Positions 16,690-20,964 of a stretch of DNA of 33,748 bases are shown here, piece by piece. How positions within the stretch are numbered: position 1 is the first letter of the stretch; each line of letters starts with the position of its first letter. Below the pieces are notes generated by a model. That model did not search any database, had not been told where the DNA came from, and worked only from the letters and a program-made list of their open reading frames with translations. Source of the stretch: Bacteroidales bacterium (GTDB lineage: Bacteria > Bacteroidota > Bacteroidia > Bacteroidales > 4484-276); the NCBI GenBank assembly GCA_014860585.1, contig JACZJL010000100.1:1-33748 (forward strand). Direction: 5' to 3'. Made by a program: the position numbers and the translations under genes.

Positions 16690-16732
16690 AACTATTGAAT
16701 TGAAATTATATATGCACACATTTGAAATCCTT

Positions 16733-16740
16733 TATCTTTG
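16733..16740 (+). promoter_or_regulatory. Putative -7 box for the AsmA-like gene
   Basis: TATCTTTG matches TAnnTTTG and lies 24 bp upstream of the ATG at 16764. It makes the ATG at 16722, which would lie upstream of it, unlikely. Confidence 0.55.
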
Positions 16741-16763
16741 TTCTACATATTAACATCCTTACC

Positions 16764-18515
16764 ATGAAATTGCCCAAGCTGATTCGTGTTTCCGGGATTG
16801 CTGTGTTGATCCTGGTTTTTATTATTGTCGGCGCTGTTATCCTGTTTGACCGGTATGCTGAAAAGATTGTTGAGACTTACCTGCAAAAGTACTATACAGG
16901 ATCTGAACTTAGCCAGGTTTATGACATCAAATATGATGGAATTGGAATTGGATTGATTTCCGGAAAAGTTCACCTGAAGGGGGTTAAAATCAGCCCGAAA
17001 AGTACTTTTTTCGATACACCGGACAGCCTGCGCTTTAAGTACCCGCTATTACTGGAATTGAACCTGCAAAAACTTTCAATATCCGGCCTGACAAGAAACC
17101 TGTCCGGAGATCTTGGACGCATCTCCCTGCAGTCTGTTGGGATTGATGAACCATCCATCAAATTGATTGACCACCTGACTGCAAAGGAAAAGAAAATGAT
17201 CCTTGAACTCAAAAAGCAAGGACTGCCGGATACACTGACAAAAAAGACTGCTCTGCCACACATCATCGTTGACGAACTGCTGGTAAGCGAAGGTCAGTTT
17301 GAGTTTTATGACCGAAACCACAAAAAAAGTGTTTTCAGTGTCGGTAATGTGACAATTGCCGGGGATGCCATCGATTTTAAGCCAAATGAAAAAGGTAAAA
17401 TTGTCTTTTCTGAAAAATCGGGCACACTCACCCTAGGTTTTAAGAACATCAATTACCTCACAAATGATGGATTCTACAAGATCAATTTGGGCAACCTTGA
17501 AATTAACCTGCCGGAATTCGTCATAATAGCTGAAAATTTTAAACTTATCCCACAGTACGATAAACAGTCTTTTGGCAGGAAATTCAGGCGGCAGACTGAC
17601 CGGATGGACGTAGCAGCAAAAAAAATAACAATTGGAAAATGGGATATTGAGAAATGGCAGAATGAAGGGCAGATTTGGATTGATGAAATTGTTGTTGATG
17701 GGGTGATGCTCGATATTTACAGGGATAAAAGTGTTGAACCCGATCTCACTATTTTCCCGAAACTTCCGCAGGAAGCGCTGGCATCAATGGATGTTGGACT
17801 GAATATCGGAGCAGTAAGAGTGACCAATGCCGAAATATTTTACCAGGAACAGATAGCTGGTGCAAGTGAGGCCGGGAAGGTACCGATCGTAAACATGCAA
17901 GCAACAATGAACAATGTTACAAATATTGAAACCGTGAAAAATACCTCAGGTCACATGAAATGGGAGTTGACAGGTAAAGTATTCGGGCATGGCAGCTACG
18001 AAGTCCTGATAGATTTTCATGGCTCTTCCCATCCGGCTGATTTCAGCTTTTCCGGCAGTATTGGAGGGATGGATATGACTTTATTAAACCAGATGATTGT
18101 CCCTAATGAGCACATACGTATTGATTCTGGGTACATGGTTTCAACAACCTTTAACGTGAACGCCAGCCGAACAAATGCCACCGGTGAAATGCACCTGCAA
18201 TACAAAGACCTAAAAATTACCTTGTTAAAAGATAAAGATGAGGAGGGGCTGAAAGACCGGGGACTATTCAGTTCGCTGGCCAATGCTACCATTCGCATTT
18301 TTAAACTTGACAAGAAAACCGGGGATGTTGAAACTGCATATATTCACTACGATCGCGACCTGAATAAAGGTGTTTTCAACTATATCATCAAGTCCCTGTT
18401 GAATGGTGTAATGGCTTCAGTGCTGCCAAGCAAGAACATTACACCCGAAGAGCAAAAAAAGAAACAGGAAAAAGAAAACCGGAAAAAGGCACGTCAGGAG
18501 CGAAAGAAAAAGTAA
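16764..18515 (+). CDS. AsmA/DUF748-like inner-membrane anchored envelope protein
   Basis: A 583-residue protein with one N-terminal membrane helix (about residues 9-28, IAVLILVFIIVGAVILF) and a long, beta-rich remainder that should lie in the periplasm. Features typical of the AsmA/DUF748 group are the repeated strand patterns (GKVHLKGVKI, LNLQKLSISGL, AAKKITIGKWDI, LNIGAVRVTNAEIFY) and the late GYMVSTTFNVNASRTNATGEM block. Related proteins form bridge-like lipid-transfer structures between membranes; that role is inferred here. The C-terminus is very basic and Lys/Glu-rich (about 25 residues), probably disordered. An earlier ATG at 16722 precedes the promoter box and was rejected. The stop codon overlaps the first of three 33-bp repeats. 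Confidence 0.75.
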   Translation: MKLPKLIRVSGIAVLILVFIIVGAVILFDRYAEKIVETYLQKYYTGSELSQVYDIKYDGIGIGLISGKVHLKGVKISPKSTFFDTPDSLRFKYPLLLELNLQKLSISGLTRNLSGDLGRISLQSVGIDEPSIKLIDHLTAKEKKMILELKKQGLPDTLTKKTALPHIIVDELLVSEGQFEFYDRNHKKSVFSVGNVTIAGDAIDFKPNEKGKIVFSEKSGTLTLGFKNINYLTNDGFYKINLGNLEINLPEFVIIAENFKLIPQYDKQSFGRKFRRQTDRMDVAAKKITIGKWDIEKWQNEGQIWIDEIVVDGVMLDIYRDKSVEPDLTIFPKLPQEALASMDVGLNIGAVRVTNAEIFYQEQIAGASEAGKVPIVNMQATMNNVTNIETVKNTSGHMKWELTGKVFGHGSYEVLIDFHGSSHPADFSFSGSIGGMDMTLLNQMIVPNEHIRIDSGYMVSTTFNVNASRTNATGEMHLQYKDLKITLLKDKDEEGLKDRGLFSSLANATIRIFKLDKKTGDVETAYIHYDRDLNKGVFNYIIKSLLNGVMASVLPSKNITPEEQKKKQEKENRKKARQERKKK

Positions 18516-18610
18516 AAGTGTTTTTTCTGTTTTACAAAATCAGGGTAAAAGTGTTTTATTCATTTTACAGAAATTGGCATAAAGTGTATTTTTGATTTTA
18601 CACTTTGGTC
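18512..18610 (+). repeat. Three tandem 33-bp repeats, each a small inverted repeat
   Basis: Units start near 18512, 18545 and 18578, with the AAGTG core recurring exactly 33 bp apart. Units 1 and 2 begin GTAAAAGTGTTTT and end with TTTTAC, so GTAAAA can pair with TTTTAC inside each. Unit 3 is more diverged but has AAAGTG at 18581-18586 facing CACTTT at 18601-18606. The first unit overlaps the AsmA-like stop codon. They may act as stacked weak terminators. Only three units, and no unique spacers of constant length, so this is not a CRISPR array. Confidence 0.7.
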
Positions 18611-18624
18611 ATAGAAACCTGTCT

Positions 18625-18840
18625 TTAACCCAACTTAAACCTCAGATATTTGATCTTTTCCCCCTTTTCTCTGAACATCTCTTCATAAAATGTGCGTATG
18701 GAAACCACATCGTCGTTTCCGGGATGAGTGTCCACATCATAAGTGTGAAACAGGAGGTTAAGATTCTGTTCAGCGATTACTTCGAGGGTGTAATCGAAAA
18801 TGGCAGTGCTGTCGGTTTTAAGGTGAACGGAGGCTACACC
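18625..18840 (-). pseudogene. trmB 3'-end remnant (duplicated fragment)
   Basis: On the minus strand, positions 18828-18625 align without gaps to the last 68 codons (including the stop) of the intact trmB at 20299. I count 26 differences in 204 bp, about 87% identity. Most fall in third codon positions; only a handful of residues change (for example TAFFDY to TAIFDY, DTNPG to DTHPG, final F to G). Weak similarity extends to about 18840 with a 9-base gap. The N-terminal two thirds, with the methyltransferase SAM motif, are absent, so it cannot make an enzyme. The pattern suggests the copy diverged as part of a working gene before it was truncated. Confidence 0.9.
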
Positions 18841-19046
18841 GCCGTTTTTAAGTGAAAGTATTGTATACCGGACTTAGGATTCAAGCATTAAGATGACCAT
18901 TAATTTGAGATTTCTCTTAAATTGTCCAATTTTGACATTGTTGTTTCAAATTAACAAATATTTATCAATCAAATATTTATTAAAAGATGTCTCTCTTTTT
19001 GTGACTTTTTAAGAATTAATAAATTGGTAAAACAGTACTCATGTAT
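18841..19046. other. AT-rich intergenic stretch without a gene
   Basis: About 200 bases, very AT-rich with runs such as CAAATATTTATCAATCAAATATTTATT, here shortened in meaning to a direct repeat of AAATATTTAT near 18955 and 18971. No open frame, RNA or hairpin of note was seen; it leads into the promoter of the gene at 19097. Confidence 0.5.
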
Positions 19047-19054
19047 TATTTTTG
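19047..19054 (+). promoter_or_regulatory. Putative promoter of the gene at 19097
   Basis: TATTTTTG matches TAnnTTTG. A TTG at 19024-19026 lies 20 bp upstream, the usual spacing for the Bacteroidetes -33 element, making this one of the better promoters in the window. Confidence 0.6.
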
Positions 19055-19096
19055 CCACGATAAGTTCAAATTCATTAATTACTAATTTTTACAATT

Positions 19097-19747
19097 ATGT
19101 TAAAACAAAAATTTACCCGAGGATTGATTTTGCTGATGCTATTTTTAAGCATGAGTGCCTTTTTGCCTGTAATGGCGCAAAACCTAATTGCTGATCCCGG
19201 ATTTGAAGCGGGAACACCCAACCCTTCATGGGTTGAGTCATCAACAAATTTTGGAACACCGTTATGTACAATTGGTTCGTGTGGGACAGGTTTAGGTACC
19301 GGCCCACACACTGGAAGCTGGTGGGCGTGGTTTGGTGGTATTTCTGCTTATGAGGCCGGAGAAATGAGTCAGTCATTGGTTATTCCCAATGGAACGGCAA
19401 ATTTGAGCTTCTGGCTTGAAATTCCTGTATCAAGCGGCAATGGCTCGGATTATCTCACAGTAGAAATTGACGGTAACACCATTGCTACTTTTTTGGAAAG
19501 TACCCCTGGTTATTTAACTTACACCCAGGTAACGCTTGATGTAAGTGCTTATGCAGATGGCAATTCACACAATGTAAAGTTTTACAGTGAGATTTTCGGA
19601 CCAACTACCACCAATTTTTTTGTTGATGATGTTGAGTTGATTGCAACCCAGGCGCCACCTGCTGTTCCAATACAACCCTGGAGTATTTTGCTTGCGGTAG
19701 GTTTAATTGCAGGTGTGGTTTTCTTTAGGTTTTTCAATATCCGGTAA
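19097..19747 (+). CDS. Secreted beta-sandwich protein with C-terminal membrane sorting-like tail
   Basis: A 216-residue protein. It has a signal peptide ending near PVMAQ (residue 28). Residues about 30-185 look like a carbohydrate-binding-module style beta sandwich: NLIADPGFEAGTP, SWWAWFGG, GEMSQSLVIP, LTVEIDGNTIATF and FFVDDVELIA. The tail is proline-rich PPAVPIQPW, a hydrophobic stretch SILLAVGLIAGVVFFRFF and a final NIR, that is, spacer, membrane helix and basic end. This is the layout of C-terminal sorting tags processed by exosortase-like or related enzymes, though the exact motif is not one I can name. It lies in the segment between the two trmB copies and 36 bp upstream of the gene at 19784. 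Confidence 0.75.
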   Translation: MLKQKFTRGLILLMLFLSMSAFLPVMAQNLIADPGFEAGTPNPSWVESSTNFGTPLCTIGSCGTGLGTGPHTGSWWAWFGGISAYEAGEMSQSLVIPNGTANLSFWLEIPVSSGNGSDYLTVEIDGNTIATFLESTPGYLTYTQVTLDVSAYADGNSHNVKFYSEIFGPTTTNFFVDDVELIATQAPPAVPIQPWSILLAVGLIAGVVFFRFFNIR

Positions 19748-19783
19748 TTAATAATTGAATTAAAACATTTAAAGCATAAAGAC

Positions 19784-20128
19784 ATGAAAAAAATAGTATC
19801 ATACGTATTAGTTACAGCATTCACATTTATGACTTTCATTTTAACTGCCAGTGAACCTGCTGATCAGAAAGCGTTGGCATCCACACAGAAAAAATTGGTG
19901 GAAATGAAAACGCAGTTGAATTTGAGTTCCGACCAGGAAACTAAAGTACAAGCGGTTTTGTACGATGCTTTCAGCAATGTAAATTCAATCCAAAAACAGG
20001 AAGGGCTTACAAAGGAGGAGAAAATTGTGAGATACAATAAGAATAGCGAGAACTTTCAAGGCGAGCTAAAGAAAATCCTGACCAAAGAGCAATACGATCA
20101 GTACCTCAGTTCAGGGAGAGGACAATAA
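19784..20128 (+). CDS. Small exported helical protein, Spy/CpxP-like in layout
   Basis: A 114-residue protein with a signal peptide (MKKIVSYVLVTAFTFMTFIL, cleavage near TASE). The mature 90 residues are almost fully helical and charged, with the LNLSSDQETKV and ILTKEQYDQYL motifs that recall the LTxxQ motifs of periplasmic Spy/CpxP-type proteins and similar small Bacteroidetes proteins. A chaperone-like or stress role is therefore possible but unproven. It follows the gene at 19097 after 36 bp and is followed by a strong terminator at 20177, so the pair forms a short operon. Confidence 0.75.
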   Translation: MKKIVSYVLVTAFTFMTFILTASEPADQKALASTQKKLVEMKTQLNLSSDQETKVQAVLYDAFSNVNSIQKQEGLTKEEKIVRYNKNSENFQGELKKILTKEQYDQYLSSGRGQ

Positions 20129-20176
20129 ATTTGGCTCTTACATAGATCACAATTATCTGATTGTTTCAGATGAAAA

Positions 20177-20212
20177 GATGCCCGCGAGTTCAAAAGCGGG
20201 CATCTCTTTTTT
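20177..20212 (+). terminator. Rho-independent terminator
   Basis: GATGCCCGC (20177-20185) pairs perfectly with GCGGGCATC (20196-20204) around a 10-base loop, followed by TCTTTTTT. It closes the 19097-19784 pair. It is the clearest terminator in the window. Confidence 0.92.
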
Positions 20213-20298
20213 GCTGTGTGTCAGTAAAATAATTTTGTGCTACAAACAATTAGCTGGTTTTAGCATATTCAACTCATGAAGGAAAAGGCTTCTATGAT

Positions 20299-20964
20299 TT
20301 AAAAAAGTTTGAACCTCAGATACTTGACCTTTTCTCCTTTCTCCCTGAACATTTCTTCGTAAAAAGTTCGGATAGAAACCACATCGTCGTTTCCGGGGTT
20401 AGTGTCCACATCATAAGTGTGAAACAGGAGGTTAAGATTCTGTTCGGCGATCACTTCGAGGGTGTAATCGAAAAAGGCGGTGCTATCGGTTTTCAGGTGA
20501 ACGATAGCGTTACTGCCGGCAACATGGCGGTAACGGGTTAAAAACTGTGGTGAAGAAAGTCGTTTTTTAGCTCTTGGTTTTTGCGGGAGAGGGTCAGGAA
20601 AGGTGATCCACAACTCATCCACTTCTCCGGGAGCGAAAATATCGCTGATGAGCTGAACATGCGTGCGAACAAAAGCAACATTGGTCATGGCTTCATCAAA
20701 TGAAGTTCTGGCACCGCGCCACATTCGTGCCCCTTTCACATCAATTCCGATGAAATTTTTGTCAGGATAACGTGCTGCCAGACCCGTTGTAAATTCTCCT
20801 TTACCACAACCCAGCTCAACTACAAGGGGATTTTGGTTGTGGAAAAAATCAGTTCTCCATTTCCCTTTGAGGGGGAAACCCTCTTTGAGTAAATCGAAGT
20901 TTGGCTGAAAAAAATGCGGAAAAGTTGCGTTTTCAGCAAAATGTTGATGTTTCCTTTTGGTCAC
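20299..20964 (-). CDS. trmB: tRNA (guanine-N7)-methyltransferase
   Basis: Methylates N7 of G46 in the variable loop of tRNAs using S-adenosylmethionine. The 221-residue protein has the SAM-binding motif VVELGCGKGEF at about 48-58, FIGIDVKGARMWRG for motif II, the TFPDPLPQKPRAKKRL substrate region, and HLKTDS near residue 157. The N-terminal FAENATFPHFFQP is also typical. Length is normal. It is the last gene of the minus-strand run from cobB, 35 bp after the SPOR protein. Its last 68 codons are duplicated at 18625-18828, so the 3' end of this gene may have been a site of recombination. Confidence 0.95.
   Translation of the reverse strand: MTKRKHQHFAENATFPHFFQPNFDLLKEGFPLKGKWRTDFFHNQNPLVVELGCGKGEFTTGLAARYPDKNFIGIDVKGARMWRGARTSFDEAMTNVAFVRTHVQLISDIFAPGEVDELWITFPDPLPQKPRAKKRLSSPQFLTRYRHVAGSNAIVHLKTDSTAFFDYTLEVIAEQNLNLLFHTYDVDTNPGNDDVVSIRTFYEEMFREKGEKVKYLRFKLF

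What the first reader, a model, noticed from the sequence alone, without database searches (positions are those of the whole stretch)
18625..20301. Duplicated trmB 3' end encloses two small secreted-protein genes
The last 68 codons of trmB occur twice in the same orientation, 1.5 kb apart: intact gene at 20299 and remnant at 18625-18828. The layout (5' part, 3' end, cargo, extra 3' end) is that left by integration of an island at a gene 3' end, or by recombination that replaced the end of trmB. The 26 differences are mostly synonymous, so the copies diverged under selection in separate working genes before the remnant was stranded; a simple local duplication followed by decay would not give this. 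The cargo is two small exported proteins and a terminator. No integrase is present.
Basis: partly seen in the sequence, partly recalled or inferred. Interest (0 to 1): 0.65.

Follow-up and report, generated by a model that had tools for sequence, protein, structure and literature searches.

The report
Recombination scar at trmB gene end
In an uncultured bacterium related to Bacteroidales, the end of a tRNA-modification gene is present twice around two small extra genes, most likely the scar left when DNA from a related bacterium recombined in and gave the gene a new tail; it is a neat example of a known process rather than a new system.

Summary
A 221-nt direct repeat (18624-18844 and 20298-20518, 85% identical, offset 1674) consists of trmB codons 150 to stop, with 26 differences in 204 nt. 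Divergence is uneven along it. In codons 197-220, 14 of 15 synonymous sites differ but only one amino acid does. The 32 codons before are nearly identical (4 differences in 96 nt), although codons 172-196 are the least conserved block of the C-terminus in 9 of 10 family relatives. So the repeat is a mosaic; only its last 25 codons clearly look like two alleles that diverged under selection. No second trmB tail was seen in 421 other genomes with a trmB match. No integrase, transposase or tRNA was found (29 of 68 ORFs scanned). Best explanation: DNA from a related species, carrying its own trmB tail and a two-gene cassette, recombined into trmB near codons 165-197, gave trmB a new tail and displaced the old one. 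In outcome it resembles the displaced icd tail at prophage e14, but it lacks the marks of an integrase element. Direction and donor are unproven. New example of a known kind; modest interest.

The parts
20299..20964 (-). intact trmB, tRNA (guanine46-N7)-methyltransferase, 221 aa, GTG start
   Evidence: NF001080 272.7 bits; PF02390 E 4.7e-30; the only full-length match in the genome
20299..20376 (-). allele-divergent tail of the intact gene, codons 197-221 plus stop (proposed replaced tail)
   Evidence: 14 of 15 synonymous sites differ from the remnant in codons 197-220
20377..20472 (-). codons 165-196 of the intact gene: near-identical zone, proposed crossover or conversion zone
   Evidence: 4 differences in 96 nt; contains most of the counterpart of the 45-nt exact run 18727-18771
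18625..18843 (-). displaced trmB tail (remnant), codons 150-221 plus stop
18625..18702 (-). remnant codons 197-221 plus stop, the other allele of the tail
18844..18845 (.). abrupt end of trmB homology, proposed non-homologous junction
   Evidence: tblastn of TrmB against 18516-20298 found no convincing match to codons 1-149 (best other E 1.7)
19097..19747 (+). cargo gene 1: 216 aa, N-terminal hydrophobic helix, beta-rich middle, C-terminal helix with basic end (sorting-signal-like)
   Evidence: no Pfam match; weak choice-of-anchor J, below cutoff; low-confidence model, mean pLDDT 59; homologues in 2 of 394 other phylum genomes at E 1e-5
19784..20128 (+). cargo gene 2: 114 aa, N-terminal hydrophobic stretch, all-helical
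   Evidence: weak DUF4890, below cutoff; model mean pLDDT 71, all helical; no PDB match with E <= 0.001
20176..20205 (+). 10-bp stem hairpin followed by a T run: likely terminator after cargo gene 2
   Evidence: RNA fold of 20145-20225, -31.2 kcal/mol for the whole stretch, z -4.8
16722..18515 (+). AsmA/DUF748-like gene, the neighbour on the remnant side
   Evidence: PF05359 E 6e-7 but below Pfam's cutoff; not beside trmB in the loci examined

Best explanation
The locus is the scar of integrase-free uptake of DNA from a related species. The incoming piece carried the 3' part of that species' trmB together with two small genes for exported proteins. It paired with the resident trmB and crossed over inside codons 165-197. 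The other end was joined without real homology at codon 150, either because the piece had circularised before a single crossover or by homology-facilitated illegitimate recombination. The result is an intact hybrid trmB with a new last 25 codons, the cassette behind it, and the old tail displaced 1.67 kb away next to the AsmA-like gene, where it is now decaying. Shown: the repeat, its mosaic divergence, the intact TrmB frame, the rarity of the arrangement in the genomes searched, no integrase in the ORFs scanned. Inferred: direction of transfer, which tail is native, the mechanism of joining, a donor in the same genus or family, any benefit of the cassette.
For: Mosaic: the best three-segment split is codons 153-164 (7 of 34 nt differ), 164-197 (4 of 100), 197-221 (18 of 73), codon-permutation p 0.02; scan statistic for 25 codons with two differing, p 0.004. 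Synonymous sites changed: 14 of 15 in codons 197-220 against 2 of 17 in 172-196, Fisher p 7e-6. Not constraint: pooled over ten relatives, codons 172-196 keep the same codon at 61 of 133 shared residues and 197-220 at 78 of 159, against 23 of 24 and 9 of 23 between the two copies. Rare: no second trmB tail in the 421 other genomes with a trmB match (52 of 58 relatives at E 1e-3; 372 of 394 class genomes at E 1e-8; 3 genomes are in both); the candidates for two matches are a gene in two pieces in G194, a gene split over two contigs in G006 (overlap 96% identical), and weak 27-28% matches in G034, G051 and G057. Cargo genes have no match at E 0.01 in 18 of 19 relatives each. The remnant holds the amino acids unusual among relatives at codons 154, 164 and 189, as expected of decay (one relative, G002, also has H at 189). 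No integrase, transposase or tRNA found. Precedent: in E. coli, 56 of 60 analysed integrants gave the PCR product of a partial target duplication, 14 sequenced at 109-950 bp, ascribed to single crossover by a circular molecule that had lost part of the homology (PMC3240628, passages).
Against: No genome with an uninterrupted AsmA-trmB arrangement and no donor was found, so direction is unproven. The statistics rest on 68 codons and 26-30 differences depending on the borders, and zones and window width were chosen after seeing the data. A two-segment model is also significant (p 0.012) with its break at codon 218, not 197. The left diverged zone is 12 codons only (p 0.009 over all nt, 0.075 at third positions). 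Cargo GC (0.43 and 0.38, window 0.433) does not mark it as foreign. A plain reciprocal crossover does not create identity, so conversion, or a patch identical beforehand, must be assumed too. Homology-facilitated illegitimate recombination usually leaves a deletion, not a duplication (PMC3240628 passages).
Confidence: 0.6

Rival explanations
1. Integrase-type insertion at the trmB 3' end, like e14 in icd: an element carried its own trmB tail as attachment site, restored the gene and displaced the native tail; the integrase was lost or acted from elsewhere.
For: The yardstick looks alike: in E. coli K-12 the displaced icdC tail is 55 codons with the stop, 9 silent and 2 amino-acid-changing codon differences, homology ending just after the stop codon. 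Here too homology ends at the stop codon.
Against: No integrase in the 29 ORFs scanned. In e14 the homology begins with an exact match (11 nt) and differences are spread; here the remnant begins with a diverged stretch and the near-identical zone is internal. No displaced trmB tail in the 421 other genomes with a match. The 6 phage records matched by the tail match the whole TrmB when the full protein is used, so they are not carried tails; of 6 plasmid records 4 are annotated trmB, 2 have no annotation under the match; no viral contig, by a search that reaches close relatives only. A paper search for trmB with integration terms listed 4 papers; in two the passages concern the unrelated TrmB transcription regulator, the other two were seen in the listing only.
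Confidence: 0.15
2. An old second, complete trmB (paralogue or acquired homologue) stood in tandem; its first two thirds were deleted when or after the cargo arrived, and gene conversion made part of the two tails alike.
For: Explains silent saturation of the last 25 codons, and the near-identical patch by conversion between neighbours 1.67 kb apart.
Against: No convincing trace of codons 1-149 between remnant and cargo; no second full trmB in the 421 other genomes with a match; few amino-acid differences in codons 165-220 (codons 189 and 213), too few for long decay of a spare copy.
Confidence: 0.15
3. Assembly artefact: a chimeric metagenome contig that joins two related species at the identical stretch.
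For: The genome is a 194-contig draft and the copies share a 45-nt exact run, long enough to mislead an assembler using short words.
Against: A wrong join at the shared stretch swaps flanks but cannot create a truncated trmB joined to unrelated DNA at codon 150; that junction needs a real molecule or a second error (inference). No reads were available to test it.
Confidence: 0.1

Closest known systems
E. coli K-12 prophage e14 in icd with displaced icdC tail
   Same: Intact gene with a replaced, mostly silently diverged tail; displaced old tail at the far side of the insert; homology stops at about the stop codon (PMC6379469 passages)
   Different: e14 carries an integrase and is 15.2 kb; its homology starts with an exact match. 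Here about 1.45 kb lies between the copies, no integrase was found, and the near-identical zone is inside the repeat
Partial gene-end duplication by single crossover of a recircularised incoming molecule, and homology-facilitated illegitimate recombination
   Same: Homology at one end, non-homologous joint at the other; direct partial duplications of the target gene of 109-950 bp by the circular route (PMC3240628 passages)
   Different: Those were selected laboratory events; here the alleles are diverged and the event is inferred. The illegitimate route usually gives deletions (same passages)
Displacement at T6SS effector-immunity and Rhs loci
   Same: New 3' part plus cargo inserted, old material pushed downstream, integrase-free model (PMC5361080 passages; Rhs work seen only as cited there)
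   Different: There the displaced genes are immunity or toxin modules; here a housekeeping gene keeps the same function and its old tail decays

Membership tests
Gene-end displacement by recombination without an integrase | Intact target gene plus truncated same-orientation copy of its end, flanking unrelated DNA | tested here: met
Gene-end displacement by recombination without an integrase | Mosaic divergence within the repeat (recombined zone between diverged alleles) | tested here: met
   rests on 68 codons, zones chosen after seeing the data
Gene-end displacement by recombination without an integrase | Empty site in a close relative and identifiable donor allele | tested here: inconclusive
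   The two congeners are only 70 and 75% identical in TrmB and have other genes downstream
Gene-end displacement by recombination without an integrase | Natural competence or conjugation as source of linear DNA | not tested
   competence and conjugation genes were not searched
Integrase-dependent genomic island at a gene 3' end (e14/icd type) | Site-specific recombinase gene in or next to the insert | tested here: not met
   29 of 68 listed ORFs of 80 aa or more, among them both cargo genes and the main neighbours on either side, scanned with Pfam: no integrase or transposase
Integrase-dependent genomic island at a gene 3' end (e14/icd type) | Exact core at the start of the displaced tail | tested here: not met
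   Codons 151-154, 157, 160, 162 and 164 differ at the remnant's start; the long exact runs are internal
Integrase-dependent genomic island at a gene 3' end (e14/icd type) | Recurrent use of the same gene end in other genomes | tested here: not met
   0 displaced trmB tails in the 421 other genomes with a trmB match; short tails below the E-value limits would be missed
TrmB (tRNA guanine46-N7 methyltransferase) | NCBIfam equivalog score above cutoff over the full length | tested here: met
   NF001080 272.7 bits, cutoff 132, residues 1-220; TIGR00091 is just under its cutoff (111.9 against 112.65, same call)

The most novel reading that the evidence does not exclude
The roughly 1.45-kb two-gene segment is a minimal integrase-less cassette that uses a carried trmB tail as its attachment site and is moved in trans by another element's recombinase, so that trmB is a hidden insertion site for surface-protein cassettes in this lineage.
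Probability: 0.06. Interest if true: 0.55.

Novelty: new member of a known kind. Interest (0 to 1): 0.25.

Why it matters
It shows, in one locus, how a housekeeping gene can receive a new tail from another species while its protein hardly changes, and how a small cassette can enter without a mobile-element gene of its own. Such scars would be missed by searches for integrases and miscalled as pseudogenes; uneven silent divergence inside the repeat is a usable signature for finding more.

Tried and rejected
Synonymous constraint as cause of the near-identical zone: rejected, the zone is not conserved in ten relatives. Remains of the rest of a second trmB between remnant and cargo: none convincing. 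A second displaced tail in relatives: none; candidates were a contig edge (G011, match ends 2 nt before the contig end), one gene in two pieces (G194) and one gene split over two contigs (G006, overlap of 170 nt at 96%). DNA search of 18600-20350 in 395 class genomes: 21 genomes besides the own one matched, by stretches of 26-70 nt; the best (G373, 70 nt at 80%, E 3e-10) lies in cargo gene 1, and some others fall in trmB itself. A tree of codons 153-220 put both copies together against the rest (88/86 support) but cannot tell which is native; the tree of the last 24 codons separated them with weak support (85/42); G009 and G011 were left out as partial. Polarising by outgroups: in codons 153-196 relatives favour the intact copy at 8 of 11 sites, the remnant at 3; in codons 197-220 it is 8 against 7 with one tie. 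Structure of cargo 1 was too uncertain to search; cargo 2 had no significant fold match. A homologue of cargo 1 (L125) was read but not analysed. A resemblance of cargo 2 to LTxxQ periplasmic proteins of the Spy/CpxP type is recalled, not tested. Paper searches on displaced ends: none for five terms together; 10 papers, of which 8 were listed and none was opened.

Full report
What is there. The window is a complete 33,748-base contig (C100) of a 4.7-Mb, 194-contig draft genome, 96% complete. Named relatives found by TrmB are Bacteroidales and other Bacteroidota, the nearest a 'Bacteroidales bacterium' at 65% identity. Two same-orientation copies of a 221-nt segment lie at 18624-18844 and 20298-20518. 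The right copy is the end of an intact TrmB gene, 20299-20964 on the minus strand. The left copy holds codons 150-221 and the stop, with no stop inside. Similarity ends at the stop codon on one side and at codon 150 on the other. Between the copies lie two genes on the plus strand and a hairpin with a T run.

The divergence is a mosaic. They are not evenly placed. By the Nei-Gojobori count, codons 197-220 have 14 of 15 synonymous sites changed and 2 nonsynonymous changes; at the protein level only codon 213 differs there (codon 221 differs too). Codons 172-196 have 2 of 17 synonymous sites changed, codons 153-171 5 of 13.8. The contrast of 14/15 with 2/17 has Fisher p 7e-6. A free three-segment fit puts the borders at codons 164 and 197, with 7 of 34, 4 of 100 and 18 of 73 nt differing; permuting codons gives p 0.02. 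A two-segment fit has p 0.012 but puts its break at codon 218, which does not help my reading. Zones for the Fisher tests and the width of 25 codons were chosen after seeing the codon table; the scan gives p 0.004 for 25 codons with two differing and p 0.013 for a run of 15 identical codons.

Constraint does not explain the near-identical zone. In ten family relatives, codons 172-196 are the least conserved of the three C-terminal blocks at the protein level in nine; G005 is the exception, and G011 covers only part of the region. Shared residues there use the same codon in 61 of 133 cases, against 78 of 159 in codons 197-220. Between the two copies the figures are 23 of 24 and 9 of 23. So in their last codons the copies are as silently diverged from each other as the intact gene is from other members of the family, and just before that they are nearly the same.

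What the differences say about history. With relatives as outgroups, the remnant holds the unusual amino acid at codons 154, 164 and 189 (G002 shares the one at 189), and the intact gene holds the unusual one at codon 213. Four of 11 nucleotide differences in codons 153-196 are of the amino-acid-changing kind, against 1 of 16 in codons 197-220. This fits a remnant that has been decaying for a short time, plus a tail that differs because it comes from another lineage.

Relatives. Of 59 genomes searched, the own one included, 53 have a TrmB match at E 1e-3. None of the other 52 shows a second trmB tail: second matches in G034, G051 and G057 are weak (27-28% identity), and the two pieces in G006 are one gene split over two contigs. 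In 395 class genomes, own included, 373 have a match at E 1e-8, and besides the own genome only G194 has two, which are pieces of one gene. Three genomes are in both sets, so 421 other genomes with a match were seen. Tails too short or too diverged for these limits would be missed. The genes upstream of trmB (SPOR protein, cytidylyltransferase, release factor, RecX, Sir2) are kept in the family. What follows trmB differs between genera, though G004 and G008 of one genus share theirs: an LptF/G-like gene and tgt in one congener, a YchF-like GTPase in the other (these names are recalled from the sequences, not scanned). The AsmA-like gene was found in 0 of 15 fetched trmB loci from 14 genomes, in two of which almost nothing downstream of trmB is held, and trmB in 0 of 6 fetched AsmA loci, some of them short. 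Cargo gene 1 has no match at E 0.01 in 18 of 19 relatives and a weak one in G018; it has homologues in 2 of 394 other phylum genomes at E 1e-5. Cargo gene 2 has no match in 18 of 19 and weak ones in G013.

Mechanism. A plain crossover between two alleles leaves the pattern of differences unchanged. So the near-identical zone means that conversion accompanied the exchange, that the segment upstream of codon 197 was duplicated from one allele, or that it was alike beforehand. Two known routes give a similar layout without an integrase. One is a single crossover by a recircularised piece, which explains the partial target duplications in 56 of 60 analysed E. coli integrants (PMC3240628, passages). 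The other is homology-facilitated illegitimate recombination, proposed for displaced effector modules in Vibrio (PMC5361080, passages) and for variable segments in E. coli (PMC2884548, passages); it usually leaves deletions. Short, mosaic donor segments are frequent in B. subtilis transformation (PMC13344027, passages). The diverged stretch at codons 153-164 and the duplication itself favour the circular route; the outgroup comparison, in which the remnant carries most changes in codons 153-196, favours the linear route. I do not choose between them.

The integrase alternative. The e14 prophage in E. coli icd gives a close yardstick: a displaced tail of 55 codons with the stop, 9 silent and 2 amino-acid-changing codon differences, homology ending just after the stop codon (PMC6379469, passages). 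The trmB case works like it in outcome. It fails three tests of membership: no integrase in 29 scanned ORFs, no exact core at the start of the displaced tail, and no recurrence in the genomes searched. Searches of phages, plasmids and viral contigs showed no element carrying only a similar tail; the phage matches are whole trmB genes, and two plasmid matches without annotation were not examined.

Limits. Nothing here proves direction or donor: the two held congeners share only 70 and 75% of TrmB residues. The genome is a draft, and no reads were available. An assembly error would not by itself make the truncated copy, but I cannot exclude one.

Noticed in passing
18512-18605: Right after the AsmA-like stop codon lie two imperfect 33-nt units (76% alike) and perhaps a third, each with a GTAAAA...TTTTAC-like inverted pair; only weak partial matches elsewhere in the genome, folding not exceptional (z -1.5).
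   Followed up: partly
19097-19747: Cargo gene 1 ends in a proline-rich short motif, a hydrophobic helix and a basic end, resembling C-terminal sorting signals (recalled resemblance); no library family matched it above cutoff.
   Followed up: partly
19024-19054: Upstream of cargo gene 1 there is a TTGG / TATTTTTG pair that resembles the Bacteroidota promoter consensus as recalled; not scored by any tool.
   Followed up: no
L033 (G011:C438), L036, L038, L042, L043: In four family members contigs end inside or just after trmB; for G006 the two pieces overlap at 96% identity. These are fragmented drafts, so it may be chance.
   Followed up: partly
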